From: a bacterium
GTDB lineage: Bacteria > Cyanobacteriota > Vampirovibrionia > Gastranaerophilales > Gastranaerophilaceae
NCBI GenBank assembly: GCA_017626055.1
Contig: JAGAJM010000004.1
Coordinates: 340,698 to 404,697, forward strand
DNA length: 64,000 nucleotides
Direction: 5' to 3'
Shown: positions 34,285 to 54,621 of the stretch, one piece after another
Numbering within the stretch: position 1 is the first letter of the stretch
Layout: each line of letters starts with the position of its first letter
Notes under the pieces: model-generated
Told to the model about the DNA's origin: nothing
What the model saw: only the letters and a program-made list of their open reading frames with translations
Database searches by the model: none
Program-made: the position numbers and the translations under genes

Positions 34285-34319
34285 AAAAAGAGTTTTGATT
34301 TAATCAAAACTCTTTTTTT
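34285..34319 (+). terminator. Terminator after tRNA-fMet
   Basis: AAAAGAGTTTTGATT / AATCAAAACTCTTTT, perfect 15-bp stem with minimal loop and a T run. Confidence 0.85.
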
Positions 34320-34508
34320 GTTTAATTTTTAAATATTTTGTTTAATATTGTAGAAAGTGTTACTATTACTGCTTTTTGACTAATTTCATTTCTATTGATT
34401 TAAATTGTAAATTTTTGTAAAGATTTCAAAAACGGAGATATCCTTAATTTTTTATCTTAAAAATGGGTTATCATATCCTTGTGGTTAATAAATTAAGGAG
34501 GAAAATTT

Positions 34509-34736
34509 ATGTTAACACCAAGAGAAAAAGAAGTTTTAGAGTTAGTTTGTAAAGGATACTCAAATTCTCAGATTGCTAATGAACTGATTATAAGCACTCA
34601 TACAGCAAAGGCTCACGTTACATCAATCATTAGGAAGTTAGGATTAGAAAATCGGACTTTGGTTGCTTGCTATGCTGTTCAAAAACATCTTGTTGATATT
34701 GATTTTGAATCGATGAAATATCTCAAAGATTATTAA
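34509..34736 (+). CDS. Stand-alone LuxR/GerE-type HTH protein
   Basis: 75 aa consisting only of the LuxR helix-turn-helix: LTPREKEVLELVCKGYSNSQ, IANELIISTHTAKAHVTSII and RKLGLENRTLVACYA. No receiver or ligand domain, so regulation must be by its own level or a partner. TAAGGAGG precedes the ATG. It is followed by a strong terminator and then tRNA-Arg, so it lies just outside the island. Confidence 0.85.
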   Translation: MLTPREKEVLELVCKGYSNSQIANELIISTHTAKAHVTSIIRKLGLENRTLVACYAVQKHLVDIDFESMKYLKDY

Positions 34737-34749
34737 AGATATAATGGTG

Positions 34750-34788
34750 CAATTACGGGGTTCTGCTTGGGCTCCGTAATTGTTTATT
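34750..34788 (+). terminator. Rho-independent terminator
   Basis: CAATTACGG / CCGTAATTG stem with a ~15-nt loop followed by TTTATTATT, 14 bp after the LuxR-type gene. Confidence 0.7.
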
Positions 34789-34871
34789 ATTGTTGAATGT
34801 ATAAAAACTGGACAAATAATAAAATATCTACTTGCAAGAAAAAATTTTCGTGCTAAGATAAAGGAACACAA

Positions 34872-34945
<74 letters not shown>

Positions 34946-34965
34946 TATTTTTTTGCCCTTGTCAG

Positions 34966-34987
34966 ATTTTCGTGGCATTTTCGTGGC
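34966..34987. repeat. Tandem 11-bp repeat next to tRNA-Arg
   Basis: ATTTTCGTGGC twice in tandem, 21 bp after the tRNA 3' end. Position suggests an integrase arm/core-site remnant. Confidence 0.5.
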
Positions 34988-35025
34988 ATTAGTTAAAATA
35001 ATATAAATGTTGATAGTATTAGTAT

Positions 35026-35067
35026 TATAGTTTTTCGGACACTTTTTATAGTTTTTCGGACACTTTT
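35026..35067. repeat. Perfect tandem 21-bp repeat containing TTTTTCGGACACTTTT
   Basis: Two identical 21-bp units (35026-35046 and 35047-35067), each TATAG followed by TTTTTCGGACACTTTT. The same CGGAC core recurs in both orientations up to 35275. These may be transposase-binding sites. Confidence 0.7.
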
Positions 35068-35156
35068 GAAATCGGTTTTTGCCATTCTTAATCGCTATGA
35101 TTGGCTTTGTGTTTGAGTTGTACCTGCTTCCCCAAGTCTGAGAGTCGGGGTTTTGA

Positions 35157-35275
35157 AAAGTCCGAAATGTCCGGTTATTAGGACGAAAATGTCCGGTATC
35201 TTTCCATAAAATTTTATAAAATTACCAAGTTTCCCTATTATATTTGAATTGCGGCCAAGTGCAAAAAGCGGACAT
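35157..35275. repeat. Cluster of inverted GTCCG/CGGAC motifs
   Basis: AAAAGTCCGAAA (35157), TGTCCGGT at 35168 and 35190 (22 bp apart) and CGGACATTTT at ~35269. Orientation of the first three is opposite to the tandem 21-bp pair. TGTCCGG as the outermost bases would fit a Mu/Tn7-type left end, but no matching right end was found. Confidence 0.45.
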
Positions 35276-35569
35276 TTTGTGCAATTTACCAATCAGAATT
35301 TATACTAAACTCGGAAGAAGCCCGCAAATTGTGCTTTTTAGAATTATAATTATTTCGCATAATTCTATGATATTTACCCCTAAGTCGGAAGTAATTTTTT
35401 AGTGGGAAATCGCTTCCCTGACTTTATTTTTCAAATATTATATCGAAATAAATTCCAAAACTTATGTATGACTTTTCTAAAAGTATGTGTAAAAAATATC
35501 GGATTAATTTTACCCCTCAAAGCTGGAAGCAGAATTGAGAGAAAGTAGCAGATTTTTGCTAAATAATAA

Positions 35570-35624
35570 ATTCAAACCCTGTTTAAATTGCGTTTAAAAG
35601 GTGTTCAAAAGCAGTTTTATAAAA
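35570..35624 (+). repeat. Array of five 11-bp tandem units, upstream of the transposase
   Basis: Units start at 35570, 35581, 35592, 35603 and 35614: ATTCAAACCCT, GTTTAAATTGC, GTTTAAAAGGT, GTTCAAAAGCA and GTTTTATAAAA. Period is exactly 11 bp (one helical turn), 122 bp before the transposase ATG. The other noncoding DNA between the tRNA and 35745 shows the repeats listed above and no gene. Confidence 0.75.
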
Positions 35625-35745
35625 TTTTCTGCTTAAAATTCAGATATAATGGAACACAAAACAACACATTTCCCCCTCAAACACTTCCATTTTGAGAGAA
35701 ACCAGTCTAACATACAGTAGCTTCAATAATAAATAAGGATACGGC

Positions 35746-37818
35746 ATGGCAGAAATTAATAATAACGATATTTGGATTGATGTTGAAACACTCGCGAAAT
35801 TGAAAAACATTACTCGTCGAGCTGTTCGGCTTGCTCTTAATCAGAATAAATATGAATACAAAGTTGAAAATATTAGAGGCGGAAAAACATACAAAATTAA
35901 ATTATCAACACTTGAAGAAGAACTTCAGCTTAAGTATTTTCAGGAATATTATGATGATTATAAAACGTGTGAGAATGAAGTTATTGAACTATCTAATCTC
36001 AACATAAAACAAGAAAAACTTATATCCGAAAACCAGAGAAAAATTGCACTCGCAAAGTATGATCTGATTTATGCTTGGCTTGATTTTAGAAAAGAATACA
36101 AAAGGGACAAGTTGAAAACAAGCGGCAACGTACCCGATAAAGAATTTTTGCAATTATATAATACAGGAATGTTTCAGGAAGAGATTTTTAAAATCTTGGG
36201 CAAAGTCTCAATCGGCTCACTTTATCGCTGGCGGGCACTTTTAGATTATAACAAAGATTGGACGGCACTTGTCGGACAATATAAATATTCAACAAGAAAA
36301 GAATACCGAACAACCTTAAATGAAGAACAAATTAAAATATTTATACAGATTTTGTTATCACCAAGTGCGTTTTCAATAGGTAAAGCAATTTCTTTAACTA
36401 AGCATATTTTAAAAGAACGCGGGCAGGAAATTTTGCCCAAAGATATTACTTTTAGAAGGTACGCAGAATGGTTCAGAGATAATAATTTTGATAAATGGAC
36501 TCTCGCAAGAGACGGAGAGAAAGCACTTAAAGATAAAGTAAGTCCGTTCATAGTTAGAAACGCAGCACTTTTAAAAGCGGGGCAAGTGCTTGTTGCCGAC
36601 GGGCATACACTTAACTTCCAAGTGATAAACCCGTTTACAGGCAAACCCTGCCGAGCGACTTTGCTTGGGTTCTTGGATTGGAAATCCGGCGGGCTTGTCG
36701 GATACGACATTATGCTTGAAGAATGTACGCAAAATATTGCATCAGCTCTTCGTAACGCGATTTTAAAAATGGATCACATTCCTGAATATGTTTACCAAGA
36801 TAACGGCCGGGCTTTTAAAAGCAAGTTTTTCAATGGTGATAAAAAGTTTGAGGAACTTGGTTTTACAGGAGTATATAACAAACTCGGAATAAAACCTGTC
36901 TATGCCACTCCATACAATGCTCGAGCAAAAGTCATCGAGCGTTTCTTTTTGGATTTTCAGGAGAGTTTTGAAAAGCTAATTCCAAGCTATATCGGCACAA
37001 GCATTGAAAACAAGCCGGCATATTTGATGCGAAACGAAAAATTGCACAAAAACATCCACGAAAAATTTGGCTTCACTCCAACGATAGAACAGGCTCTTAA
37101 AATGATTGATAAATGGCTTGAATTCAAACACTCGCAACCTTGTCCGAATGCTAAAGATAAAACAATTCAAGAAGTTTTAAACGAAATCGAAAAGCAAAAT
37201 ATTGACGAAAACTCACTTGATGATTTGATGATGGCACAAGAAATTAAGAGTATCGGCAGAAACGGAATCCGGTTTTTGAAAGCTGATTATTTTGACGAGG
37301 CACTATATGGTATCAAAGAAAAAACGGTTATAAAGTACAACCTGTTCGATTTGTCGTATATTAAGGTTTATTCAATGAAGGGTGAGTTTATCTGTAAAGC
37401 AAAACGTATAACTGAAACTCATCCGCTTGCTTATCAAATGGGCGATATCAAAGATATTGAGGACTACAAACAGAAGATTGAAAAACAACAAAAGCTCCGT
37501 AGAAAAACTATTAAGGCGGTTCGAGAACATTTCAATTTAGAGGATATGGATTATATTGAAAAAGAATTGATGCAAAATATTCGTTTACCCAAACCTGAGC
37601 CTATTAAAGAAATAACGGTTCAACCTGAACCAAAGCCGAAACAGAATTTTGAACCGAAAGTTAAAACTTCAATTGTTGCAAGGCCGATATTTAAAAGTGC
37701 ATACGAGCGTTATGAATGGCATATGCAGAATGGTTGTATCTGCCCTGAAGATAGAACGTGGCTTGCAAATTACATAAAATCTGACGAATACAAAGAAATA
37801 TACGGAAAGGAGCAGTAA
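35746..37818 (+). CDS. Mu-like DDE transposase (MuA/TniA-type)
   Basis: 690 aa. N-terminal winged-helix DNA-binding domain (IWIDVETLAKLKNITRRAVR, 9-58), a second HTH region (~135-165), then an integrase-type catalytic core with D285 (VLVADGHTLNF), D352 (YQDNGRAFKSKF) and E398 (ARAKVIERFFLDFQ). C-terminal region ~560-690 is basic and helical and could bind the ATPase partner. AAGGA before the ATG. It cuts and joins transposon ends by a Mu/Tn7-family mechanism. The next gene overlaps the stop. Confidence 0.9.
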   Translation: MAEINNNDIWIDVETLAKLKNITRRAVRLALNQNKYEYKVENIRGGKTYKIKLSTLEEELQLKYFQEYYDDYKTCENEVIELSNLNIKQEKLISENQRKIALAKYDLIYAWLDFRKEYKRDKLKTSGNVPDKEFLQLYNTGMFQEEIFKILGKVSIGSLYRWRALLDYNKDWTALVGQYKYSTRKEYRTTLNEEQIKIFIQILLSPSAFSIGKAISLTKHILKERGQEILPKDITFRRYAEWFRDNNFDKWTLARDGEKALKDKVSPFIVRNAALLKAGQVLVADGHTLNFQVINPFTGKPCRATLLGFLDWKSGGLVGYDIMLEECTQNIASALRNAILKMDHIPEYVYQDNGRAFKSKFFNGDKKFEELGFTGVYNKLGIKPVYATPYNARAKVIERFFLDFQESFEKLIPSYIGTSIENKPAYLMRNEKLHKNIHEKFGFTPTIEQALKMIDKWLEFKHSQPCPNAKDKTIQEVLNEIEKQNIDENSLDDLMMAQEIKSIGRNGIRFLKADYFDEALYGIKEKTVIKYNLFDLSYIKVYSMKGEFICKAKRITETHPLAYQMGDIKDIEDYKQKIEKQQKLRRKTIKAVREHFNLEDMDYIEKELMQNIRLPKPEPIKEITVQPEPKPKQNFEPKVKTSIVARPIFKSAYERYEWHMQNGCICPEDRTWLANYIKSDEYKEIYGKEQ

Positions 37819-38549
37819 TGAAAAAGGTTTTCGTAAAAACAAAGAATGTAAAACAACTAATCTCGATGATGAACCGTCTTAAAGAAAGAGAAGACGGAGT
37901 ACCGGGAATGGGACTTGTTTATGGCGAACCGGGGCTTGGCAAAACTTACGCGATTACTTGGTGGGCGGCACAAAATGATGCAATACTAATCAGGAGTGCC
38001 AATCTTATGTCGGCTCGGTGGTTATTAGAAGAGATGGTTGAAGAATTAGGCGAGATTCCTTATAACAAGTTCTCGGATATCTTCAATCAAGTAGTATCGC
38101 AATTAATCAAAACTCCAAGAACCATTATTGTAGATGAAACGGACTATTTGACTATTGATTCTCGGGCGGTTGAAACATTAAGGGACATTCACGACAAAAC
38201 GAATGTCCCTATTATTTTAGTCGGGATGGGTACGGCAAATAAAAGGCTCCAAAGGCACAAACATTTATACGATAGATTATTAGAAATTATAAAATTTGAA
38301 CCATTTTCTAAACAAGATATAACTTCAATAATCGACCAATTATCTGAAGTTCCGTTTACAGATTGCGCCAAAAAACTTTTATACACTCGCACAAATCGAT
38401 TCAGGCAATTGGTAAAAACTATCAGTAAAGCGGAACAGGTTGCAAAATCAAACGGAATAAAAGAAATTGACGAAATAACATTGAAGGAGGTGCTAAAAAA
38501 TGACGATGCTGACGCAGAAGAAATTGAACTTACAAATGAAAATTCTTAA
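37818..38549 (+). CDS. MuB-like AAA+ transposition ATPase
   Basis: 243 aa. Walker A YGEPGLGKTYAITWW (about 33-42) and Walker B PRTIIVDETDYL (~100); later LVGMGTANKRLQRH is the sensor I region. MuB/IstB/TnsC-type ATPases choose target DNA and activate the transposase. The start overlaps the last base of the transposase stop (TAATG), and its end overlaps the third gene, so the three are co-translated. Confidence 0.88.
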   Translation: MKKVFVKTKNVKQLISMMNRLKEREDGVPGMGLVYGEPGLGKTYAITWWAAQNDAILIRSANLMSARWLLEEMVEELGEIPYNKFSDIFNQVVSQLIKTPRTIIVDETDYLTIDSRAVETLRDIHDKTNVPIILVGMGTANKRLQRHKHLYDRLLEIIKFEPFSKQDITSIIDQLSEVPFTDCAKKLLYTRTNRFRQLVKTISKAEQVAKSNGIKEIDEITLKEVLKNDDADAEEIELTNENS

Positions 38550-39744
38550 AATAGCAAAGGGGCTTAATAAATTCACTCTGCCTGACATTCTTCCAATGCT
38601 TGAAGAAAATGAAAAAACAATTCAAAAAGCACTTAATGATTTAGAGTCTTTGGACCAAATTAAAAAGATATCAAATACAGAATATCTATACACAAATTTT
38701 AAAAAACGTGTGAATAAACTAGTCCCCACCGGCCAGAACAGAGATTCAGATATTTGGCTCACAATACCCGAAGTTGCTAGACTGCTGAATATTCAGGAAG
38801 AAACGGTAAAAAGGAATTGTCTTAAAGGAAATTATATCGTAAAACCTAATAAAGAACCTGACTTGAATGGAAAATATTTAATTAAACGCTCTTCATTAAA
38901 GTTATACGAATTTTTAGAGGATTCCGAACGGCGTGCAATGGATAAAGAAGTCAAAAAACTTTTCCATAATAAAGAGGAAGAACGTTTGTATGTTGTGGCA
39001 TCGGACAGGGGCAAAGAATTTATATATAGATACCTGAAACTTTTTAAACTAACAGAAGGTATGAATTGCAAAGAGCTGCGGAGCTTTTTGGAATTAATTC
39101 CTTTAAAGAATCCGAAACTAAAGGTTTCATATTCTGCGTTTCATTCAAAAAGAAAAAAGTACCAAACAGAAGGTATGATGGGAATATTTCCCAAATATTT
39201 TATGCCGGATAATAAAAACGAAGAACCAAAAGTCCGAAGAAACTTAAACCGCTTGCCGAAAGTCTATAATTTAGCAACGACAGAGCAAATAGAGATTATT
39301 TATAAATGTTTCTGCTTTGGAATTCCGGCCTCACAAACCGCAAAAATCGCAAATTTGGGAAATACAACAACGGAAACTTTTTATCAATATATTCGAGCAA
39401 AAATCTTTGACAAACAATATCAGGAGTTGGTTGAGCATTTTGAGTCTGAGCCTCAAATCCCGCAAGTCAGGATTTTTATGAATGATGTTTCAATATGCTT
39501 GTACTGCTATAATGACAATGTTTTTATCACTCAAAAACCACTAAAATCAAAGTTGTCGCAACGACGCCAACAACCCGAGGAAGTCAAAGAAGCACGCAGA
39601 TTATACAATATTCTTTACCGCAAAAAGTTTATGGCAAGTATGAGAAAATACCTCGACCACCACCTCGCCGTATTTTTATGGAAAGAACTGAACCCTAATT
39701 TTGAAGATCAATTGAATTTGATTTATGAGATGATACATATATAA
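38500..39744 (+). CDS. Third gene of the transposition module: HTH protein of unknown role
   Basis: 414 aa. AAGGAGGTG lies 7 nt before ATG 38500, inside the end of the MuB-like gene (50-bp overlap). A segment near residue 90 (IWLTIPEVARLLNIQEETVK) is strikingly like the N-terminal DNA-binding domain of the transposase (IWIDVETLAKLKNITRRAVR), so both may bind related sites. An N-terminal winged-helix-like region precedes it. No TniQ/TnsD zinc ribbon, no catalytic motif. Possible accessory end-binding protein or regulator of transposition. Confidence 0.65.
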   Translation: MTMLTQKKLNLQMKILKIAKGLNKFTLPDILPMLEENEKTIQKALNDLESLDQIKKISNTEYLYTNFKKRVNKLVPTGQNRDSDIWLTIPEVARLLNIQEETVKRNCLKGNYIVKPNKEPDLNGKYLIKRSSLKLYEFLEDSERRAMDKEVKKLFHNKEEERLYVVASDRGKEFIYRYLKLFKLTEGMNCKELRSFLELIPLKNPKLKVSYSAFHSKRKKYQTEGMMGIFPKYFMPDNKNEEPKVRRNLNRLPKVYNLATTEQIEIIYKCFCFGIPASQTAKIANLGNTTTETFYQYIRAKIFDKQYQELVEHFESEPQIPQVRIFMNDVSICLYCYNDNVFITQKPLKSKLSQRRQQPEEVKEARRLYNILYRKKFMASMRKYLDHHLAVFLWKELNPNFEDQLNLIYEMIHI

Positions 39745-39747
39745 AGT

Positions 39748-40545
39748 TTAATTTAAAGTATATGCGTATTTACCATTCTTCTCGCATAAAAATATCTTTT
39801 TAAACTTAGAATTAAATTTATGCTCGAATAGTGAATTATCAAAAGAACAATAATTAGCATTGTATGCATTGGGTACAATTATTAACAAATAACATTTAGT
39901 ACAATCCTTGCTATAAGATTGGATTTTATCATTCTTTTTATTAATACAGATTTGTAATTCATCAATGGGGGTTTGCTTTACCATGCCTGCATTATTGACG
40001 TGGCAATCATATTTCCCTGTCCAAGGACAAGCAAAAGACTCAATTGAAATTTTAAAATATTCATTTTCTACTTGAATCCACTCTTGCACAAGCCAACCTT
40101 GTCTCAATTTTTCTATATTATTTTTGAGAACATCATGCATTTTTTGTTTAAGCGTTTTCAAATCAGGCAATTCTGAAAACCTAGGGTTATATGCATAATC
40201 CAAAAGATCTTTCAAATGGATGCTAAATTCCCTTTCATCATATTTATCAATAAGTATATGTATGTGGAGATTATATTTCTTTTCGGCTTCCCTGCATATT
40301 TTATTACCTATTCTGGTTAATGCTTGGGAAAATTTAAGGTTTTTATTTTCTGCTATAAATTTAGTTATTTCTAATGCGATAGTGTCACCATTTATAGTCT
40401 TAATTTTAAAATCCGGAGCTTCTGATTTTGCATAATCAACAATACCAAGTTCTTCATACCATTCCTGCCCAACTTTGGTTTTGAAAAACTTTTCAACTTG
40501 TTCTTTTTCTTCTAATTCTTTAATTTCAGTTTTATTCATCTTCAT
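39748..40545 (-). CDS. Hypothetical protein, possible PD-(D/E)XK-like fold
   Basis: 265 aa. EAPDFKIKTINGDTIALEIT (about 35-55) has the layout PD-x(n)-ExT, a degenerate form of the PD-(D/E)XK nuclease core; the final lysine is missing. Cysteines in the C-terminal third (CPW, DCHV, CTKC) may bind a metal. Converges with the transposition module and diverges from the DUF4186 gene. Its -10 (TATGAT) lies 6 nt before the ATG and overlaps the -10 of the divergent gene. Confidence 0.55.
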   Translation of the reverse strand: MKMNKTEIKELEEKEQVEKFFKTKVGQEWYEELGIVDYAKSEAPDFKIKTINGDTIALEITKFIAENKNLKFSQALTRIGNKICREAEKKYNLHIHILIDKYDEREFSIHLKDLLDYAYNPRFSELPDLKTLKQKMHDVLKNNIEKLRQGWLVQEWIQVENEYFKISIESFACPWTGKYDCHVNNAGMVKQTPIDELQICINKKNDKIQSYSKDCTKCYLLIIVPNAYNANYCSFDNSLFEHKFNSKFKKIFLCEKNGKYAYTLN

Positions 40546-40565
40546 TATGTTATCATAAATTTATG
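40543..40565. promoter_or_regulatory. Overlapping divergent leaderless promoters
   Basis: Plus strand: TGtTATCAT (40548-40556), AAATTT, ATG 40563. Minus strand: TATGAT (complement of 40552-40557), AACATA, ATG at 40545. The two -10 hexamers share five base pairs within a TTATCATAA symmetry, and the two predicted starts are 18 bp apart. Confidence 0.65.
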
Positions 40566-40919
40566 GAAATATTGGATAAACTTGCAAAATCAAAATTCAG
40601 GAGCAGATTTAAACTCCGAGCAAAAGAGCTTGAATATATCAAGGATAAAGGAATTGATACAATTCATTCTCATGCCTGCGATTTTATTCGGGATAGAGTT
40701 GCTCCGGCAGAACCTGTAAACGACGGTAAACAAACCCCAATGCGAGGTCATCCTGTGTTCATAGCCCAACATGCAACCGCTACTTGCTGCCGCGGCTGCA
40801 TTGAAAAATGGTACAAATTCCCTCAACACAGAGAATTAACTAAAAACGAACAAGAATACCTTGTTTCAGTAATTATGGAATGGATAAACCGCCAAATTAA
40901 TTCAAACCCTGTTTTATAA
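40563..40919 (+). CDS. DUF4186 family protein
   Basis: 118 aa, matches the family along its length: FRSRFKLRAKELEYIKDKG, HACDFIRDRVAPAEPVNDGK, TPMRGHPVFIAQHATATCC and RGCIEKWYKFPQ. The conserved His and Cys residues (HPVF, QHATATCCRGC) could form a metal site. Function is unknown; the family is common in bacterial genomes and mobile elements. No room for a ribosome-binding site: predicted leaderless. Confidence 0.88.
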   Translation: MEILDKLAKSKFRSRFKLRAKELEYIKDKGIDTIHSHACDFIRDRVAPAEPVNDGKQTPMRGHPVFIAQHATATCCRGCIEKWYKFPQHRELTKNEQEYLVSVIMEWINRQINSNPVL

Positions 40920-40954
40920 CTGTTCAAAATATGTTCAAATAAAGTTGTGATAAT
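40900..40954 (+). repeat. Array of five 11-bp tandem units over the HEPN promoter
   Basis: Units start at 40900, 40911, 40922, 40933 and 40944: ATTCAAACCCT, GTTTTATAACT, GTTCAAAATAT, GTTCAAATAAA and GTTGTGATAAT. The first unit equals the first unit of the array at 35570. The last unit overlaps the extended -10 of the HEPN gene; the first overlaps the last codons of DUF4186. Confidence 0.75.
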
Positions 40955-40956
40955 AT
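40948..40956 (+). promoter_or_regulatory. Extended -10 of a predicted leaderless promoter (HEPN gene)
   Basis: TGaTAATAT then ATATCT then ATG 40963. The 11-bp array lies where the -35 would be, so an activator or repressor bound there would control this promoter. Confidence 0.65.
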
Positions 40957-40962
40957 ATATCT

Positions 40963-42453
40963 ATGGATAAAGAATTTAAACAAACATTTTCTACAGAATG
41001 TGACAAAGCAATTGCATCCGGAAACATAAAAACAATAGATATTACAATAGAAAAATTAGAAAAATTAAAGTCAAATGTATCTGAAGGTTTGCTTTTAACA
41101 CATATACTATATTGTCTTTCAAACTTACATTTTACTAAGGCTGGTATAGAAAATGAAAGAATTGATCAATGGCGTAAATCTATGTCTCCTCAAAATTTAG
41201 TGAAAAGCTTAAACTATGTCAGACAAGCATATTCAATGGCAATAAAGTTTAATTCTTTGCAATTATTAGAGATTCAAACAAATCTTGCGAATAACATAAA
41301 AGCGTTTAATAGATTTGTTGAAGCTATACATTATTACACTTTTGATTATAATTTTAACTTACAAATTGATTCCCAATATGTTGCTCCATATAATAAAGCA
41401 TACACCTTGATTCTTTTAAAAGATTTAATAAATGAACAGCCTGTAAATATTCATTATTCATATTATGCATATAGTCTCATTGATCGGTTAAGCCAAAATC
41501 AAGAGAATATAACACATGCGGGGATAAAAAATGACATAGGAAAAGAGACTTGGGTAAAAAATATATTAATATGGGGGAAATCTGCTGAATCTGAATACAA
41601 GAAATTAAATGAGCTGTTAAATTCAATACAATTCGATAACATAGAGCAAAAAATTTATTATTCATGGTGTGGAAAAAACAAACTCTTTCTCAATCCTATT
41701 AATGATGTAAGAATTGATATAGCTACATTTGAAGATATAATACAGTTTCCAAATTACATTGTAAAAGTAGGTGAAGGACCATATTTTAGCGCTGCTTTTT
41801 CCGATATAAAAAACAGATTTTGCAAGGCTCGTTATTTATTATTTAATGCTTTAAACAATCCTTTTCCGGCCTGGCTTGAAAATGGTCTAAATTTAACATC
41901 TGTATTAGAATATGAGAATTATTCAACCAATGCCGAATTCATAAAAGTTGCCATAAAACTAGCCTTTAGCACTTTGGATAGCTTGGCCACTTTAATGAAA
42001 AATTATTTTGCAATAAATAGTAAAGATAAATGTTATTTTAATCCAAAATGGATAAGAAAGAGTTTTTCTAATATTCAAAATCCTTATATAGATGCACTAT
42101 ACTGGTTATCTTGTGATTTAACTGATACTGATAACATAGCAGATTGGAATGAGACAAACCCAAGTGCGGGGATACTAAGAAAACTTAGAAATAACCTTGA
42201 GCATAATTGGGTTCGCATATCAGAAGCAAAAAGTACAGTATGGCTTGGTGAGCAAGATTATGCTTTTACTTGTACATTGGAGCAATTGTCCACTGCAGCT
42301 TTGGAAGTATTTAGATATGCTCGAACAGCAATGATATATTTTGTTTTAGCTGTTCAATTTAACGAAAAATTAAAAAATGAAAAAGAATCTGATGGCCTAT
42401 GTGTTACTATGGAAACACCAATATATAACGACCTTCATTTGCCAATATTTTAA
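40963..42453 (+). CDS. LA2681-like HEPN domain protein
   Basis: 496 aa. Helical throughout, with a TPR-like N-terminal half. The C-terminal HEPN segment has PSAGILRKLRNNLEHNWVRI, containing the R-x4-H signature (about R408-H413) of HEPN ribonucleases. LA2681-type HEPN proteins are known from defence-rich loci, where HEPN RNases act on RNA during infection or stress; that role here is inference. No adjacent nucleotidyltransferase (MNT) antitoxin is found. Confidence 0.75.
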   Translation: MDKEFKQTFSTECDKAIASGNIKTIDITIEKLEKLKSNVSEGLLLTHILYCLSNLHFTKAGIENERIDQWRKSMSPQNLVKSLNYVRQAYSMAIKFNSLQLLEIQTNLANNIKAFNRFVEAIHYYTFDYNFNLQIDSQYVAPYNKAYTLILLKDLINEQPVNIHYSYYAYSLIDRLSQNQENITHAGIKNDIGKETWVKNILIWGKSAESEYKKLNELLNSIQFDNIEQKIYYSWCGKNKLFLNPINDVRIDIATFEDIIQFPNYIVKVGEGPYFSAAFSDIKNRFCKARYLLFNALNNPFPAWLENGLNLTSVLEYENYSTNAEFIKVAIKLAFSTLDSLATLMKNYFAINSKDKCYFNPKWIRKSFSNIQNPYIDALYWLSCDLTDTDNIADWNETNPSAGILRKLRNNLEHNWVRISEAKSTVWLGEQDYAFTCTLEQLSTAALEVFRYARTAMIYFVLAVQFNEKLKNEKESDGLCVTMETPIYNDLHLPIF

Positions 42454-42494
42454 TACTTATGTTTGTGATACACTAAAAGAAAAAGGAGTGGTGT

Positions 42495-43424
42495 ATGGTT
42501 GCAACATTAGGAAGATTGAAAAAAGTTAATTTGCGTGAAGCATGGAAACATGAAGCATTAGATTTTACTCGTTGGCTTGCGCAAGAAGATAATCTTGCAT
42601 TATTAAGCGAAGAAATAGGAATTGATATTAACTTGATTCAAACTGAAGCTAGTGTAGGTTCTTTCAATGTAGATATATTAGCAGAAGATTCTAATGGCAG
42701 GAAAATCGTAATTGAAAATCAATTAGAAGCAACTAATCATGACCACTTGGGTAAAATTATAACTTACGCATCCGGCTACAATGCAGAAATAGTAATTTGG
42801 ATAGTTAAAGATGTTAGAAACGAACACAAACAAGCAATAGATTGGTTAAATGAGCATACAGACGAGAATATAAATTTCTTTGCTATAAAATTAGAGTTAT
42901 GGCAAATAGATGGTTCTCCATATGCACCTAAATTTCAAATTATCAGTAAGCCAAATGAATGGGCAAAAATTATGAAAGCACCAGTTTCATCTCTTACGGA
43001 TAGGAAATTAAAACTGCTTGATTTCTGGACAGCTTTAAATGAATATTTGAGCAATAAAGGTTCCCAAGTTCATCCACAAAAACCATCATCAGATCATTGG
43101 AATAATGTTTCTATTGGAACTTCAAAAGCACATATTAGTCTTACAGCGTTAGGAAAAGAAAACAAAATTGGTGTTGAACTATATATTCCTGATAATAAAG
43201 AGTTTTACTATCAATTAGCTGAACATAAAGAAGAAATTGAAAAACTTTTTGGAGAAGAATTGCTTTGGCAAGAACTAAAAGGTAAAAAAGCAAGCAGAAT
43301 TTCCATTAGTAGAGATAACTTTAACCTTTATGACAATAAAAGTTGGGAAAAAGACTTTATTTGGCTTGAAGAAAAAACTCTTGCTTTTAAAAAAGCTTTT
43401 TGTCCATTTATGAATATTAATTAA
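42495..43424 (+). CDS. DUF4268 protein with PD-(D/E)XK nuclease-like core
   Basis: 309 aa. AAAAGGAGTGGT precedes the ATG. VGSFNVDILAEDSNGRKIVI followed by ENQLEATNHDHLGKIITYAS has the D-x(n)-E-x-Q layout of the RmuC/Endonuclease-like PD-(D/E)XK subgroup in which Q replaces K. The C-terminal DUF4268 part (~165-309) is typical of restriction-like proteins in defence islands. Function unproven. Confidence 0.75.
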   Translation: MVATLGRLKKVNLREAWKHEALDFTRWLAQEDNLALLSEEIGIDINLIQTEASVGSFNVDILAEDSNGRKIVIENQLEATNHDHLGKIITYASGYNAEIVIWIVKDVRNEHKQAIDWLNEHTDENINFFAIKLELWQIDGSPYAPKFQIISKPNEWAKIMKAPVSSLTDRKLKLLDFWTALNEYLSNKGSQVHPQKPSSDHWNNVSIGTSKAHISLTALGKENKIGVELYIPDNKEFYYQLAEHKEEIEKLFGEELLWQELKGKKASRISISRDNFNLYDNKSWEKDFIWLEEKTLAFKKAFCPFMNIN

Positions 43425-43653
43425 TGCGTTCAATATACCAGTTACTATTTCCAAAATGATTGAAATTCCAATGTAATTCAAAGTAAAAATTAAACTCCAA
43501 AGAATTATCATCTTTGAAGTTCCAAGAATATTTGTTTAGTTGTGTTTTGCGGTAACTTTCAAACGCATCTTGAATTTCTTTAGCAAACTTTTTTCTGAAT
43601 TCAGAATACGGAATATCCAACATTTCTTTGGTCAATTTATTTCTCAAAATCAT
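43417..43653 (-). CDS. Small phage-like protein
   Basis: 78 aa from ATG 43653, which lies inside the end of the upstream 66-aa gene with GAGGG before it (overlap ~17 bp). Mostly helical, then aromatic-rich (WNFKDDNSLEFNFYFELHWN). Third of a minus-strand trio of tiny genes. Its 3' end overlaps the convergent DUF4268 gene by 8 bp. No family recognised. Confidence 0.5.
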   Translation of the reverse strand: MILRNKLTKEMLDIPYSEFRKKFAKEIQDAFESYRKTQLNKYSWNFKDDNSLEFNFYFELHWNFNHFGNSNWYIERIN

Positions 43654-43837
43654 CCTCAAACCCTCTGATATTATCAAGTTCAATGTTGTATCTTTTGCCG
43701 GTTTTATCAACACAAGTTGCGAAGTCTACGGTTTTATCGGCAAACTTGTTTTCCCATAAACAAATCAATAATCCAATTTCTTGTGTTTTTAAGTTTAAAA
43801 TCTTTGTTCCGTATAACTTATAATCTTTTTCGACCAT
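43637..43837 (-). CDS. Small phage-like protein
   Basis: 66 aa, beta-rich (TKILNLKTQEIGLLICLWEN, then FATCVDKTGKRYNIELDNIR), similar in size and feel to the 70-aa gene upstream. AAAGGA before the ATG. Member of the same small operon; function unknown. Confidence 0.5.
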   Translation of the reverse strand: MVEKDYKLYGTKILNLKTQEIGLLICLWENKFADKTVDFATCVDKTGKRYNIELDNIRGFEDDFEK

Positions 43838-43840
43838 AAT

Positions 43841-44053
43841 TTATCCTTTCGTTATTTGAATATCTGCGTATATCTCATCCGGCTTATCTGGGTCAATCAA
43901 AAAATTTTTATCAAACACATATCTTTCGCCATCCGGTGCGACGCAGCCGACAATATTGGGTTCACCCAAACAAACAACCGTAAATTCTTCGCTATCTTTT
44001 TCAAACCAGCCTTTAAGCTTTTTTAATCTGTATTTTTTACCGATTTCAATCAT
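43841..44053 (-). CDS. Small phage-like protein
   Basis: 70 aa, beta-rich (FTVVCLGEPNIVGCVAPDGE, RYVFDKNFLIDP). Strong AAAGGAG before the ATG. First gene of the trio; the region before it carries the GATGTATTGTG motif shared with two other genes. Confidence 0.5.
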   Translation of the reverse strand: MIEIGKKYRLKKLKGWFEKDSEEFTVVCLGEPNIVGCVAPDGERYVFDKNFLIDPDKPDEIYADIQITKG

Positions 44054-44072
44054 ATTCTGCTCCTTTCAAGCT

Positions 44073-44093
44073 ACACAATACATCACTCTTTTT
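44073..44093 (-). promoter_or_regulatory. Shared upstream motif GATGTATTGTG (copy 1)
   Basis: On the minus strand AAAAAGAGTGATGTATTGTG lies just before the ribosome-binding site of the 70-aa gene. Copies AATGTATTGTG before the 73-aa gene (about 44929-44941, minus) and GATGTATGTTGTG before the methyltransferase (about 45014-45027, plus) suggest a common promoter or operator. Confidence 0.45.
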
Positions 44094-44213
44094 ATATGAA
44101 ATATCAACTCAAAATCTCGAAATCGTATCATTAAGACACATTTGGGACTTGATGTTTGTGCGAAACAGAGTTATCCTGTGTGTACCAAAACTTTATTTAC
44201 CTCGAGATTAATT

Positions 44214-44669
44214 ATGAAAAAACAAACATTGGCACAAGATGCATTTAAACTCTATGCTGAAAAATTTATGTCGTTAGAAGATATCGCAAGGCAGCTTCAT
44301 TTGAACGAAAGGACGCTTCGCCGATGGAAAAAGTCTGATGATTGGGAAACCAAAAGAGCTGAATATCTTCGGACTAAAACAACGTTACATTCAGATTTAT
44401 ATGATTTTACCCGAAGTTTGATAAATTCTATCGAAAAGGATATGGAGAGCAACGGTAAAGTCGAGCCTGCAAGATATTATGCCGTTACTAAAATGCTGCA
44501 ATTGATTGATCCTGTTAAATCTTATGAGGATGAAGTGTTAAACGAAAAACAAAAAACTAAAGAAGAAAAGCCGAAAGGTTTAACGCCGGATGTTATACGA
44601 GAAATTGAAGAACGAATTCTCGGCATAACTCACGAGGAAATTTGTGAACACGATTTGAACACCGATTAA
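44214..44669 (+). CDS. Phage terminase small-subunit-like HTH protein
   Basis: 151 aa from ATG 44214. N-terminal HTH FKLYAEKFMSLEDIARQLHL followed by NERTLRRWKKSDDWETKRAE is the usual DNA-binding head of Mu-like/DUF1804-type terminase small subunits; the rest is helical. No large subunit follows. The 3' end is built over the inverted 11-bp array. Start not strongly supported by a ribosome-binding site. Confidence 0.6.
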   Translation: MKKQTLAQDAFKLYAEKFMSLEDIARQLHLNERTLRRWKKSDDWETKRAEYLRTKTTLHSDLYDFTRSLINSIEKDMESNGKVEPARYYAVTKMLQLIDPVKSYEDEVLNEKQKTKEEKPKGLTPDVIREIEERILGITHEEICEHDLNTD

Positions 44670-44693
44670 ACACCTTTTAAACGGCATTTAAAT
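44639..44693 (-). repeat. Array of five 11-bp tandem units, inverted orientation
   Basis: Read on the minus strand from 44693: ATTTAAATGCC, GTTTAAAAGGT, GTTTAATCGGT, GTTCAAATCGT and GTTCACAAATT. A 27-bp part (44666-44692) matches 35582-35608 in inverted orientation at 24 of 27 positions. Most of it lies in the last codons of the terminase-like gene. Confidence 0.75.
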
Positions 44694-44909
44694 TTCGGCA
44701 TCTTTTTCGTGATTTATAAAGAATGCGTTCAAAACATCTGCGTCATTTCGCAGATGCTTAATAACCGGTGCAAGATTGTAGCATTCTTCTATTTCCGGTT
44801 GATTTGCGACAAAATAATCTATAACAACCGCTGTGTTATAAATATTCTCCGCCCACTTACTTAACTGTTTAAACTCTTTTGGAGTAATATTAAATCCTAC
44901 TTTTTCCAT
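44688..44909 (-). CDS. Small hypothetical protein
   Basis: 73 aa, helical (FKQLSKWAENIYNTAVVIDY). AGGAGG before the ATG and the shared GTATTGTG motif upstream. No family recognised; typical of small phage/mobile-element genes. Confidence 0.5.
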   Translation of the reverse strand: MEKVGFNITPKEFKQLSKWAENIYNTAVVIDYFVANQPEIEECYNLAPVIKHLRNDADVLNAFFINHEKDAEI

Positions 44910-45088
44910 ACTTAAGACCTCCTAACTCACACAATACATTAGCGTGAAAGTACAGAGAAAGCATTTAAATCTTAACATTGCAACACATTCTATTGAATAA
45001 ATTATTAAAAGAGTGATGTATGTTGTGAAAACTTATATAAAAGGACAAAGCAAAAATTTTAATGTATGATAAAAGAAAGGAGATACGA

Positions 45089-45802
45089 ATGGTATACGAC
45101 TTAAGATATGGTGATTGCTTTAAATTATTAGATGATATTCCTGACAAATCTGTCGATTTAATATTGACGGATCCTCCATATAATATTGCAAAATATTCAA
45201 CAGGAAATATCGATTTACCAGGACGTTCTGCATTAAATAACGATTTAGCAGATTGGGATAAGGCTGAAATTGAACCCAAAGACCTTTTAGAAAATTTTAA
45301 AAGAATTATCAAGCCCAAAGGCAATATTTTCGCATTTACCACATATAATCAAATTGGCAAATGGCATGAAGCGTTTGATAGCGAATTTGATACTTTTCAA
45401 TTCGCAGTATGGCATAAAATAAATCCTGCACCTAAAATATACAAGAATGGTTTTTTAAATAGTTGCGAATTAATAGTTTGCATGTGGAATAAAGGTCATA
45501 ATTGGAATTTTTCTAATCAAAAAGAAATGCACAACTTTTTTGAAACCCCAATTTGCATGCAACCGGAACGTTTGAAGTACCCAAAACATCCAGCTCAAAA
45601 ACCTGTAAAATTATTAGAAAAAATCATTAAAATTGCCTCAAATGAAGGTGATACAATTCTTGATCCATTCATGGGAGTCGGGTCAACAGGTATTGCTGCG
45701 CAAAACACAAATCGTAATTTTATTGGCATGGAGTTAGACAAAGAATATTTTGATGCAACAATTAGAAGATTTAAAGCATATGAACAAAAAATAAAACGCT
45801 AA
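45089..45802 (+). CDS. DNA methyltransferase (N4/N6, beta class), orphan
   Basis: 237 aa from ATG 45089; AAAGGAG is ideally placed and an earlier in-frame ATG would put it inside the gene. Motif IV LILTDPPYNI precedes motif I DPFMGVGSTGIAAQNTNRNF, the beta-class order; DPPY suggests N6-adenine. HPAQKPVKLLEKII is the usual link between them. No restriction gene is next to it on the same strand, so it may be an orphan methylase shielding the element from host restriction. Confidence 0.9.
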   Translation: MVYDLRYGDCFKLLDDIPDKSVDLILTDPPYNIAKYSTGNIDLPGRSALNNDLADWDKAEIEPKDLLENFKRIIKPKGNIFAFTTYNQIGKWHEAFDSEFDTFQFAVWHKINPAPKIYKNGFLNSCELIVCMWNKGHNWNFSNQKEMHNFFETPICMQPERLKYPKHPAQKPVKLLEKIIKIASNEGDTILDPFMGVGSTGIAAQNTNRNFIGMELDKEYFDATIRRFKAYEQKIKR

Positions 45803-45808
45803 AAAGAG

Positions 45809-46585
45809 TTATTTTATTCTTGATAATATAATACCGTCTTTTTCTCTATAATTTTTTATAATATTGGCTGTGATGGTATTATTGTATTTTTCTTTCAACC
45901 ACATGTATTTATCTAAGGCTACTTGGTCGTATAATCCAATTTTTATTTGCTTTTTTAGTTCTATAATGTAGTCAGCCCATTGCTCATTACTATCTACTTC
46001 AGACCCAAAAGTATCATACGAAATATAGTCAATATAATAATAGCCATCATTATCCATTTTTAAGCAACTAACTATGTCTTTTTCTTCATCTCTTGCATCA
46101 TAATCAATTTGTGAAGAATATTTAGAACATTCTGTGATAACTTTATTTGGGATTATTACTCTTGGGTATTTTGCAACTTTTTCCATTGAAACAACTTTAT
46201 TCATGGCTGGTCCAAAAATCGTTGTATTTTTATGATACAAATCTCCACAAGTGCAAGCACCTCTTAAGAAAATACCATGCAATGCTGCAAAATTTGCTTG
46301 TAATCTCATGACATCCAATATTGTGTAAAATAAACCAGAAGGTGTTTCTATAGGGAAAGAAATTATAATCGAATCAGAAACTTGTAAATAATTTTTTTCT
46401 TTGCTTTTTGCCCATTTTATTTCTTCAGCTTTACGTTTACTTATCCATCTTGTGTAATCAAGGTGATATTCAGCATTATCAAACTGTTTCAACATTTCAT
46501 CAACTGAAATTTTATTATTTTCAATTATTTCCTTGAACCCTAAAATGTCTAAAAAGAAAATTACACAATTTTTATATTCTGCCAT
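45809..46585 (-). CDS. Class III nucleotide-cyclase-like protein at the end of an RM operon
   Basis: 258 aa. Start moved to ATG 46585 because CGGAG (46591-46595) precedes it; an earlier in-frame ATG lies at 46612. VIFFLDILGFKEI (Asp13) and YLQVSDSIIISFP (Asp71) match the two metal-binding Asp of class III adenylate/guanylate cyclases, and FLRGACTCGDLYHKNTTIFG followed by PAMNKVVSMEKVAKYPRVII is typical of an uncharacterised cyclase-like family. Purine-specifying residues were not recognised. It might make a nucleotide signal or be an inactive relative. Last gene of the MTase-HNH-nuclease operon. Confidence 0.55.
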   Translation of the reverse strand: MAEYKNCVIFFLDILGFKEIIENNKISVDEMLKQFDNAEYHLDYTRWISKRKAEEIKWAKSKEKNYLQVSDSIIISFPIETPSGLFYTILDVMRLQANFAALHGIFLRGACTCGDLYHKNTTIFGPAMNKVVSMEKVAKYPRVIIPNKVITECSKYSSQIDYDARDEEKDIVSCLKMDNDGYYYIDYISYDTFGSEVDSNEQWADYIIELKKQIKIGLYDQVALDKYMWLKEKYNNTITANIIKNYREKDGIILSRIK

Positions 46586-46599
46586 TTCAGTCTCCGTAT

Positions 46600-47448
46600 T
46601 TATTGAGAACATTCTCTAATCATATCATTTAACTTTTCGTTCAAATTGATTTGATTGATTGCTTCATTGTATATCTTGGTAAACTCATTAAAATCAATGC
46701 CATCAGGCAAAATCTTATTCCAAAAAGCAGAACCCACTAAAAACATATGTGGATATTGCAAATATTTCTTAATAGAACCAGACCAAGTTCTACCTTCCCC
46801 ATCTTTATGATAAATAGTTGCAAAATAAGGTTTTGTTTTTCTATAATTTAGACCTGTATAAATAGTTAAAAGCTTTTTAGCGTTTGACGGTGCGTTGCTA
46901 CTATCAAGATTACCACCTGCTTTAATTTCCATAATATTTAATTCATCACCATCCCAAAATGCCAAATCAACAGGCTTTGTTTGATAGTCATTGGTAAATG
47001 GCAAGTCGCCAGATATAAGTTCCAGTATGCTTTCATGGTTTACTGAGCAACAAACTTTCCTCTTTTTATCACCTTCGCATCTAGTCATAAATTCAGCAAT
47101 TCTACCCTGCAAAGCTGGATTGTGCATATCCACATTTGAAACAATTATTTGTTCGTGTTCGTTAGAATTTATAATATTGTGTTCAAGATTATGTGGGTTA
47201 ATTATTTGAGGAACATTTTCAGTACCATATCTTAATTTCGCAACTTCTTTTGCAACTTTTTGAATAGAATTGCCGCTTTTTGACTCAAAGCTACTTACGA
47301 AAACCATGTGAGCAGACATCAGAGTATCTAATTCTTTGAGCAAAAAATTATGTTGTTTAGCCTTGAAATTTGTTACAAAATCACCTTGTATTTTTTCTAT
47401 TAACGAAGAAAATTCTTCTTCTACAATGTTAAAAATTCTATCTCTCAT
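46600..47448 (-). CDS. PD-(D/E)XK restriction endonuclease
   Basis: 282 aa. KPVDLAFWDGDELNIMEIKA with the following GGNLDSSNAPSNAKKLL is a clean PD-(D/E)XK catalytic core (D, then E-x-K). N-terminal helices and a VSSFESKSGNSIQKVAKEVA segment recall TdeIII-like type II enzymes, but that sub-assignment is tentative. It starts inside the end of the HNH gene (11-bp overlap). With the Dam-type methylase and the HNH protein it forms a type II restriction-modification operon. Confidence 0.7.
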   Translation of the reverse strand: MRDRIFNIVEEEFSSLIEKIQGDFVTNFKAKQHNFLLKELDTLMSAHMVFVSSFESKSGNSIQKVAKEVAKLRYGTENVPQIINPHNLEHNIINSNEHEQIIVSNVDMHNPALQGRIAEFMTRCEGDKKRKVCCSVNHESILELISGDLPFTNDYQTKPVDLAFWDGDELNIMEIKAGGNLDSSNAPSNAKKLLTIYTGLNYRKTKPYFATIYHKDGEGRTWSGSIKKYLQYPHMFLVGSAFWNKILPDGIDFNEFTKIYNEAINQINLNEKLNDMIRECSQ

Positions 47449-48169
47449 TTTGAAAAACCTCTTTTAACTTTTCTACATTTATATTATTTCGATGTAATAT
47501 TTTATGACAATTGGAACAAAGCGGAACTAAATTTAATCTTGCTTCCTCTAAATTAGATATTTCACCATTTTCCTCGTATATAGATACGGGTTTAATATGA
47601 TGTAATTCAATGTAATTTTTACCTAAAGCACCATATGTGATTTCAAAATCAAAACCGCAAACTTCACATTTAATTTTATTTTTGGATTTATAATATTCAA
47701 ATGCATAATTTCTTAATTTTTGCGATCGCTTACGAGTTTTAGAATTAGTTGTTACCAATTTACCTTCGCTGACTTCTTCCTCTAGTACAAAATATCTATT
47801 TGAAGCACCCAGTAGGTTTAAATTAGCAATTTTCTGGTCTTCAACATCGAAATGCCCACTATTAATATATTCATATTCTTCGTATTTAACTTCAAGGAAA
47901 TTTAAGCCAATTTCTGTAATGTAATATTTTTTATTTACATATTCTGCAAAATTATAGCGCTCTAATGTTTTATGTGAACGCAAGTTCCTAACCTTTTGAG
48001 AAAAATAAGTATCACTTCTTCCAGAAATTACTTCAACATCTTTACCACTAGGTTGCATTACTTCTGTTAGCATCGCAATCAAATCTGAAGTACTTAATCC
48101 ATTATCATGTATGGAAAGTAATTTTAATGTAGGAATTACTAATTGTGCTTCAGAAATACGTTCTTCCAT
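47438..48169 (-). CDS. HNH endonuclease with N-terminal winged helix
   Basis: 243 aa. Residues ~1-95 are winged-helix-like (LKLLSIHDNGLSTSDLIAML). The HNH domain is C-terminal: CEVCGFDFEITYG, YIELHHIKPVSIYEENGE and LVPLCSNCHKILHRNN, with both CxxC pairs of the zinc knuckle. It lies 8 bp after the methyltransferase gene and overlaps the next nuclease gene. Two nucleases beside one methylase is unusual; one may act on methylated or hemimethylated sites. Confidence 0.85.
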   Translation of the reverse strand: MEERISEAQLVIPTLKLLSIHDNGLSTSDLIAMLTEVMQPSGKDVEVISGRSDTYFSQKVRNLRSHKTLERYNFAEYVNKKYYITEIGLNFLEVKYEEYEYINSGHFDVEDQKIANLNLLGASNRYFVLEEEVSEGKLVTTNSKTRKRSQKLRNYAFEYYKSKNKIKCEVCGFDFEITYGALGKNYIELHHIKPVSIYEENGEISNLEEARLNLVPLCSNCHKILHRNNINVEKLKEVFQNER

Positions 48170-48177
48170 AAAAACTC

Positions 48178-49356: not shown

Positions 49357-49363
49357 AGAAATT

Positions 49364-49369
49364 ATTATA
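49364..49369 (-). promoter_or_regulatory. -10 box before the RM operon
   Basis: On the minus strand TATAAT, then 7 nt, then ATG at 49356. Divergent from the ATPase promoter. Confidence 0.55.
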
Positions 49370-49441
49370 TGCTAAACATGTTATTAGCACAATGTAATGA
49401 AGAAAGGTTAAGAAAGAGGCCTATTTATCAAAAATTTATTA

Positions 49442-49447
49442 TATAAT
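49442..49447 (+). promoter_or_regulatory. -10 box of a predicted leaderless promoter (ATPase gene)
   Basis: TATAAT then TGTTTT then ATG 49454; no ribosome-binding site in the preceding AT-rich sequence. Confidence 0.6.
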
Positions 49448-49453
49448 TGTTTT

Positions 49454-51217: not shown

Positions 51218-51260
51218 TGGTGCTAAAATATTACTTCCATGAATACATTATTTGTTTTAT

Positions 51261-52592: not shown

Positions 52593-52601
52593 TGTATCCA
52601 C

Positions 52602-54617: not shown

Positions 54618-54621
54618 ACCA

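What the first reader, a model, noticed from the sequence alone, without database searches (positions are those of the whole stretch)
35570..44693. Three five-unit arrays of exact 11-bp repeats (GTTYAAA-N4) across the mobile region
Arrays at 35570-35624 (plus), 40900-40954 (plus) and 44639-44693 (minus) each have five units with strict 11-bp period; unit 1 begins ATTYAAA and units 2-5 begin GTT. Arrays 1 and 2 share unit ATTCAAACCCT; arrays 1 and 3 share GTTTAAAAGGT, and a 27-bp stretch matches 24/27 in inverted orientation. The layout (one site per helical turn, 7+4) resembles PhoB/OmpR-type boxes and the cyanobacterial Pho box, or transposase/partition sites. Arrays 1 and 3 flank 9 kb in inverted orientation, and array 2 lies inside it, recalling the left-end, internal and right-end site sets of phage Mu.
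Basis: partly seen in the sequence, partly recalled or inferred. Interest (0 to 1): 0.85.

Follow-up and report, generated by a model that had tools for sequence, protein, structure and literature searches.

The report
Dispersed 11-bp operator-like arrays in transposable phages
Strips of about five 11-base-pair DNA repeats are scattered through Mu-like phages and defence islands of one bacterial family, and they are likely docking sites for a still unidentified protein that would control these mobile elements.

Summary
The arrays are real: strict 11-bp period, scanner scores 29.9, 23.9 and 28.5 against a best of 14.4 in 640 kb of simulated sequence. They are not the element's ends: the left end, at 35047, is a different motif. 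They belong to a site family found in 109 of 239 genomes of this bacterial family; in a phylum sample, 39 of 62 family genomes against 2 of 84 others. One prophage of the same family carries five, and four distant Mu-like phages carry five to seven each. In the window's own genome all 7 exact two-unit sites lie inside arrays, so a host regulon with this motif is not supported. Arrays lie between genes, inside coding sequence on either strand, and before transposase, recombinase and cargo genes, without fixed promoter geometry. Best reading: dispersed operators for one cooperatively binding protein, one molecule per helical turn, as E. coli ArcA uses three to five repeats. The binder is unknown. 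A small-terminase-like HTH protein encoded beside array 3 is the best-linked candidate, but 5 array-bearing genomes lack it.

The parts
35570..35624 (+). array 1, five 11-bp units, upstream of the transposase
   Evidence: score 29.9; TATAAT within 60 bp downstream in 37 of 42 cluster members, one mismatch in the other 5
40900..40954 (+). array 2, four clear units plus one weak, after DUF4186 and before the HEPN gene
   Evidence: score 23.9; 12 different downstream groups at 16 places
44639..44693 (-). array 3, five units, overlapping the 3' end of the terminase-like gene and abutting the 73-aa ORF
   Evidence: score 28.5
48940..48994 (+). weaker fourth array inside a methyltransferase ORF, antisense
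   Evidence: score 19.0
35047..35290 (+). left end of the Mu-like transposon (TATAGTTTTTCGGACAC with inner TGTCCG motifs); inner limit approximate
   Evidence: same start in 27 of 65 related loci
35026..35046 (+). partial second copy of the left-end motif
35746..37818 (+). transposase, 690 aa (rve, Mu-transpos_C; phrog_310)
37818..38549 (+). AAA/TniB-type transposition ATPase (phrog_296)
38500..39744 (+). third transposon gene, 414 aa, weak HTH_17 match
40563..40919 (+). DUF4186 gene
40963..42453 (+). HEPN_LA2681 cargo gene
42495..43424 (+). DUF4268 cargo gene (PADLOC candidate PDC-S11)
43420..43656 (-). 79-aa accessory ORF (phrog_34337)
43637..43837 (-). 66-aa accessory ORF
   Evidence: recurs beside arrays
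43841..44053 (-). 70-aa accessory ORF
   Evidence: recurs beside arrays
44214..44669 (+). small-terminase-like HTH protein, 151 aa, candidate reader of the arrays
   Evidence: array within about 1.5 kb in 26 of 30 loci fetched
44688..44909 (-). 73-aa ORF abutting array 3
34292..58928 (.). island, absent from the matching site of another genome; begins just after tRNA-Met (34201-34277)

Best explanation
The three arrays are members of a site family dispersed through Mu-like phages and phage-related defence islands, and they are likely operators on which one cooperatively binding protein would line up, one molecule per 11-bp unit, to hold down or time the transposition, recombination and cargo genes nearby. 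Shown by the calls: the sites, the 11-bp period, a heptamer better conserved than the spacer, confinement of exact two-unit sites to arrays in the one genome searched for them, recurrence near transposase, recombinase and cargo genes and inside coding sequence, and several arrays per phage. Inferred: that a protein binds, that binding is cooperative, that the outcome is transcriptional control, and that one protein serves all arrays. The binder is not identified; I think it most likely comes from the mobile elements, because no sites of this motif were found elsewhere in the genome.
For: Heptamer more conserved than spacer in all 7 of the 7 largest clusters scored, e.g. 0.93 v 0.78, and in coding arrays 0.88 v 0.69 with flanks 0.73. 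Genome-wide, 7 of 7 exact two-unit sites lie in arrays, reversed control 0. Arrays track the transposase in 46 genomes: both 29, array only 1, transposase only 3, neither 13 (counted; Fisher p 7e-8). Array 1 is followed within 60 bp by TATAAT in 37 of 42 cluster members and by a one-mismatch form in the other 5. An array lies 64-81 bp upstream of a 179-181-aa tyrosine recombinase in 8 of the 10 small recombinase ORFs I noticed (exceptions L158, and L295). After DUF4186 an array-bearing tail is followed by 12 different sequences at 16 places, and in L050 a Gabija pair lies between two arrays. Mu-like phages carry 5-7 arrays each. Parallels in print: ArcA uses two to five direct repeats mainly 11 bp apart (PMC3798270, passages); stoperators are repressor sites spread through phage genomes (PMC9283540, passages).
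Against: No fixed geometry to promoters: of 27 clusters a same-strand gene start lies within 250 bp downstream in 8, a divergent start upstream in 11, a convergent gene end downstream in 13; 9 lie inside ORFs, 5 of them antisense. No binder is identified: of the candidates tested, only host OmpR-family proteins occur in every array-bearing genome, and they occur in all 46 genomes. Stoperators need a set orientation (PMC9283540), not seen here. In the array 1 cluster the flanks are nearly as conserved as the heptamer (0.91 v 0.93). Nothing here measures binding or expression.
Confidence: 0.45

Rival explanations
1. The arrays are docking (pac-like) sites for small-terminase-like HTH rings of Mu-like phages, one HTH per helical turn, so that phage and island DNA is chosen for packaging; islands would ride in helper-phage capsids.
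For: All 25 genomes with the terminase-like protein have arrays (Fisher p 2e-8; the G018 match is a 22-residue piece at a contig end). 26 of 30 fetched loci have an array within about 1.5 kb, against 1 of 29 control loci. Relatives lie directly before a large terminase in L179/L180, L293 and L296, and one array phage encodes a phrog_756/DUF1804 protein beside its large terminase. In known small terminases adjacent HTH motifs are about one DNA turn apart (PMC4737164, passages).
Against: 5 of 30 array-bearing genomes lack it; a profile search of the 21 genomes without it also found none, though without a positive control in that call (105). Phages carry 5-7 arrays, more than one packaging start needs. 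KS10 has an annotated small terminase (DNA binding protein) but no array above 13.5. SF6 small terminase is reported to have little sequence specificity (PMC4737164).
Confidence: 0.25
2. The arrays are transposition accessory sites, such as an enhancer or target-immunity sites that keep the element from inserting into itself.
For: Mu-like elements and phages carry them; transposase and arrays co-occur; spread through the phage genome.
Against: Arrays occur with no transposase found in the genome (G029) and in modules with a tyrosine recombinase; left-end motif differs; transposons themselves insert into their own left ends.
Confidence: 0.13
3. A host OmpR/PhoB-type response regulator binds the arrays, and mobile elements borrow it.
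For: Layout as in ArcA sites (PMC3798270); 2-4 such proteins in every one of 46 genomes, including the array-bearing genomes that lack the terminase-like protein.
Against: No two-unit site of this motif outside arrays in the genome; arrays confined to about half of the genomes though the proteins are in all.
Confidence: 0.1
4. The arrays are recombination sites at which cargo cassettes are exchanged.
For: Array 2 and array 3 separate constant from variable neighbours; small tyrosine recombinases lie near arrays. On the downstream side of the loci, both-side conservation is lower at arrays than at gene ends (0.31 v 0.60, p 1e-4).
Against: On the upstream side it is higher at arrays than at gene ends (0.53 v 0.35), so there is no consistent excess of breaks. 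Arrays also lie inside conserved coding sequence.
Confidence: 0.06
5. Chance or low-complexity sequence.
For: The units are AT-rich; some viral hits are identical-unit minisatellites.
Against: Reversed-pattern controls near zero; scores far above simulation; heptamer conservation.
Confidence: 0.01

Closest known systems
ArcA multi-direct-repeat sites of E. coli (OmpR/PhoB family)
   Same: two to five direct repeats, mainly 11 bp centre to centre (PMC3798270, passages)
   Different: here the sites are confined to mobile DNA in the genome searched, and some lie inside coding sequence; no OmpR-family match was seen among the window ORFs given to Pfam
Stoperators of cluster A mycobacteriophages
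   Same: copies of one repressor-site motif dispersed through a temperate phage genome (PMC9283540, passages)
   Different: stoperators are single 13-bp asymmetric sites whose orientation follows transcription; here arrays of about five units without fixed orientation
Phage Mu operator/enhancer and end sites
   Same: Mu-like transposase and ATPase genes; one array upstream of the transposase promoter
   Different: Mu has no lag-11 triplets and only weak scanner hits (16.5 and 15.2); the left-end motif here is unrelated to the array
pac sites with direct repeats (SPP1)
   Same: repeats next to a small terminase gene (PMC4737164, passages)
   Different: several arrays per genome here; no large terminase was seen in the window
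ParR-parC 11-bp iterons (recalled, from no call)
   Same: groups of five 11-bp direct repeats
   Different: no ParR/ParM-type match among the ORFs given to Pfam; not searched further

Membership tests
OmpR/PhoB-type operator | direct repeats at 11 bp | tested here: met
OmpR/PhoB-type operator | bound by a Trans_reg_C response regulator | not testable with these tools
   2-4 such proteins in each of 46 genomes; binding not tested
OmpR/PhoB-type operator | further sites at host genes | tested here: not met
   7 of 7 exact two-unit sites are in arrays, own genome only
Mu-type transposon end sites | sites at the element's termini | tested here: not met
   left end at 35047 has a different motif
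Mu-type transposable element (carrier of the arrays) | rve/Mu-transpos_C transposase with AAA partner | tested here: met
   (rve below its curated cut-off, Mu-transpos_C above)
Mu-type transposable element (carrier of the arrays) | both ends and a target duplication | tested here: inconclusive
   left end found, right end not found
Small terminase / pac | terS-like gene beside the repeats | tested here: met
   26 of 30 fetched loci against 1 of 29 controls
Small terminase / pac | reader present wherever arrays are | tested here: not met
   5 of 30 array genomes lack it
Small terminase / pac | packaging starts at the site | not testable with these tools
   needs packaged-DNA sequencing
Stoperator | dispersed copies of one motif in a temperate phage genome | tested here: met
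   5-7 arrays per phage
Stoperator | orientation follows transcription | tested here: not met
   strand of T-type units is ambiguous
Integron-like cassette site | synteny breaks concentrated at the site beyond gene ends | tested here: inconclusive
   more breaks on one side (0.31 v 0.60 kept), fewer on the other (0.53 v 0.35 kept)

The most novel reading that the evidence does not exclude
The arrays are a shared address tag read by phage small-terminase-like rings, one HTH per helical turn. Defence islands carry copies of the tag, and sometimes their own terminase-like reader, so that Mu-like helper phages carry them in capsids: a satellite-like route by which Gabija, restriction and HEPN systems spread through a bacterial family.
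Probability: 0.2. Interest if true: 0.85.

Novelty: new variant of a known kind. Interest (0 to 1): 0.62.

Why it matters
One site family marks transposable phages, transposons, tyrosine-recombinase modules and defence cargo in 28 of 41 genera sampled in a bacterial family, and recurs in distantly related Mu-like phages whose hosts I did not determine. My literature searches (open-licence PMC papers only) listed nothing that I recognised as a description of these arrays.

Tried and rejected
Arrays as element ends: rejected, the left end has another motif; no right end with that motif was found. Cassette recombination sites: suggested, but breaks are not consistently in excess of those at gene ends. 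Host regulon: no two-unit sites outside arrays. Promoter box with one spacing: not met. Terminase-like protein as the only reader: five array genomes lack it. The 73-aa neighbour as reader: 7 array genomes lack it and 4 have it without arrays. 11-bp arrays as a feature of transposable phages in general: not seen in Mu, KS10 or TJ1 beyond weak scanner hits; the Mannheimia phage has AT-rich triplets at several lags and is uninformative. Foldseek of the terminase-like model: no match at E 0.001 or below. Scan of viral contigs with that protein: none confirmed. MG592413 was fetched as a lead and carries no array.

Rows dropped before counts: one search uses only arrays scoring 20 or more in Gastranaerophilales loci; overlapping fetches make the 235 redundant, hence the 27 clusters. 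One search scores the seven largest clusters, non-redundant rows only. One search drops positions near locus ends. One search's control uses 29 of the 30 flank loci (the window's own was left out). The 30 terminase-like loci are those returned under the cap, of 52 places listed. Contingency, family/phylum and small-recombinase counts were made by eye from the calls named.
Full report
WHAT IS THERE. The three arrays are at the stated coordinates. Array 1 is ATTCAAACCCT GTTTAAATTGC GTTTAAAAGGT GTTCAAAAGCA GTTTTATAAAA. Array 2 is ATTCAAACCCT GTTTTATAACT GTTCAAAATAT GTTCAAATAAA GTTGTGATAAT. Array 3 (minus) is ATTTAAATGCC GTTTAAAAGGT GTTTAATCGGT GTTCAAATCGT GTTCACAAATT. Scanner scores are 29.9, 23.9 and 28.5, against a best of 14.4 in 640 kb of first-order simulated sequence. 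A fourth, weaker array lies at 48940-48994 (19.0). In the whole genome the four-unit pattern has 19 overlapping matches at up to 3 mismatches, the reversed pattern 0; at up to 2 mismatches they fall on six places: the window's three arrays, C27:7311, C27:22641 and C20:205657.

WHERE THEY SIT. The neighbours are a Mu-type transposase (Mu-transpos_C; phrog_310), an AAA/TniB ATPase (phrog_296), a 414-aa protein with a weak HTH match, DUF4186, HEPN and DUF4268 cargo (the last a PADLOC candidate, PDC-S11), small accessory ORFs, and a small-terminase-like HTH protein at 44214-44669. The transposon's left end is at 35047: 27 of 65 related loci start there, with differing flanks (one, L031, has no flank in view). 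Its motif, TATAGTTTTTCGGACAC, is not the array motif. No right end with that motif was found. Genome G008 joins window 34291 to 58929 at about 80% identity on both sides, so an island of about 24.6 kb begins just after tRNA-Met.

HOW WIDESPREAD. Where related records are named, they read Candidatus Gastranaerophilales or Melainabacteria, apart from two titled uncultured Acinetobacter. In 46 genomes of the genus, arrays (up to 2 mismatches) occur in 30, the reversed control in 2; the transposase occurs in 32: both 29, array only 1 (G029), transposase only 3, neither 13. In the family 109 of 239 genomes and 28 of 41 genera have arrays at up to 1 mismatch; the reversed control rings in 4 genomes. 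In a phylum sample 41 of 146 do: by my count of the table 39 of 62 in the family and 2 of 84 outside, one of these two with near-identical units.

A PHAGE FEATURE. An exact four-unit pattern hit 30 stretches of IMG/VR. Seven look like identical-unit minisatellites (L232, L236, L242, L243, L245, L252, L259); the other 23 have varied spacers. Of 17 records searched, 16 have matches at up to 3 mismatches and the reversed pattern none. Four phages read in pieces have arrays as follows: G279 seven (cut 16), G281 seven, G277 seven and G287 five (cut 14). Lag-11 triplets exceed all other lags in them. G279 encodes phrog_310, phrog_296, a phrog_756 DNA-binding protein and a large terminase, and the other three encode transposase relatives. 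Their hosts were not determined; the nearest named transposases, 37-38% identical, are of Burkholderia phage KS10 and Curvibacter phage TJ1. A contig of the window's genus (G015:C33) is a Mu-like prophage with large-terminase and transposase genes by Pfam, other structural genes by eye, and five arrays at 16 or more, the weakest 16.8. KS10 has nothing above 13.5; TJ1 has one hit at 15.5; Mu has two, 16.5 and 15.2.

NOT A SIMPLE PROMOTER BOX. 235 arrays (score 20 or more, redundant) fall into 27 clusters: 18 between genes, 9 inside ORFs, 5 of these antisense. A same-strand gene start lies within 250 bp downstream in 8, a divergent start upstream in 11, a convergent gene end downstream in 13. 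In second-family transposons one array lies inside the 3' coding end of the transposase and one antisense inside the third gene; in a third family the antisense array lies at another place of that gene. The heptamer is better conserved than the spacer in all seven clusters scored, coding ones included. In five phage sets 19 of 30 arrays are intergenic, against 5-11% of bases. The TTTAAA core is self-complementary, which weakens arguments from orientation.

RECURRENT NEIGHBOURS. (a) Transposase promoter: TATAAT within 60 bp in 37 of 42 members of the array 1 cluster, one mismatch in 5. (b) Cargo after DUF4186: 12 different downstream groups at 16 places; in L050 a Gabija pair lies between two arrays. 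(c) A 179-181-aa tyrosine recombinase with an array 64-81 bp upstream, in 8 of 10 small recombinase ORFs noticed. (d) A 73-aa ORF, array, then 70-, 66- and 79-aa ORFs, also with no transposase near. The C20:205646 array lies beside an ogt-like ORF and about 450 bp from a degenerate 73-aa relative. (e) The terminase-like gene: 26 of 30 fetched loci have an array within about 1.5 kb, 1 of 29 control loci.

WHO READS THEM. Terminase-like protein: all 25 genomes with it have arrays, but so do 5 of the 21 without it; a profile search of those 21 found none, with no positive control in that call (105). Its Pfam and PHROG matches are of small-terminase and DUF1804 type; a model (mean pLDDT 81, pTM 0.45) has no structural match at E 0.001 or below. 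73-aa protein: weaker association. Host OmpR-family proteins: 2-4 in each of 46 genomes, but the exact two-unit site occurs 7 times in the window's genome, each time inside an array.

MECHANISM. The layout works like ArcA's: 92 of 158 ArcA sites have three to five direct repeats, mainly 11 bp apart (PMC3798270, passages). Dispersal through a temperate phage works like stoperators (PMC9283540, passages). I therefore favour dispersed operator arrays for one cooperatively binding protein that belongs to the mobile elements. Binding, cooperativity and effect on transcription are inferred. The main rival is a terminase-like ring, since in known small terminases adjacent HTH motifs are about one DNA turn apart (PMC4737164, passages).

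LITERATURE. KS10's putative transposase sites are terminal 15-nt repeats (PMC2628397, passages). Passages of the Leptospira transposable-prophage paper (PMC8705779), the Mu domain paper (PMC3820752) and a Shewanella Mu-like prophage paper (PMC8541194) did not mention such arrays. Other papers were seen in search listings only.

Noticed in passing
window 35026-35046; L063 8854-9531; L038 9068-9535; L066 8451-8882; L030 4747-5055: Left ends of the transposon are stacked in tandem, as if new copies insert into an existing left end.
   Followed up: partly
window about 42455-42495; L037, L050, L077, L079: Different cargo genes share a leader like TGTTTGTGATACCCTAAAAGAAAAAGGAG, in several loci directly behind an array.
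   Followed up: partly
L155 11012-11515; L031 3585-4600: The third transposon gene carries a phage-integrase SAM-like domain in some families, while catalytic-only tyrosine recombinases of 179-181 aa lie next to arrays elsewhere.
   Followed up: partly
L050 16993-19837: Gabija-type pair (GajA 1.5e-90, GajB 1.4e-45) with an array on each side.
   Followed up: yes
L296, L297: Mu-like prophage in the window's genus, with two transposase-like genes.
   Followed up: partly
L291 (AF083977) 3303-3346: Weak array-like hit (16.5) in phage Mu at the junction of genes A and B, where second-family transposons have an array.
   Followed up: no
L038 9000-9068: An array lies 14 bp before a left end of the transposon.
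   Followed up: no
window 34872-34945: A tRNA-Arg gene lies inside the island, about 100 bp before the transposon's left end.
   Followed up: no
window 45062-55593: DNA methylases, TdeIII-like and HNH nucleases and a HerA-type gene follow the arrays.
   Followed up: partly
window 57420-58833: A HipA gene (Pfam HipA_C, Couple_hipA) with a small upstream ORF lies at the right end of the island; elsewhere XRE-HipA-like pairs follow an array beside the small recombinase (L280, L282, L285).
   Followed up: no
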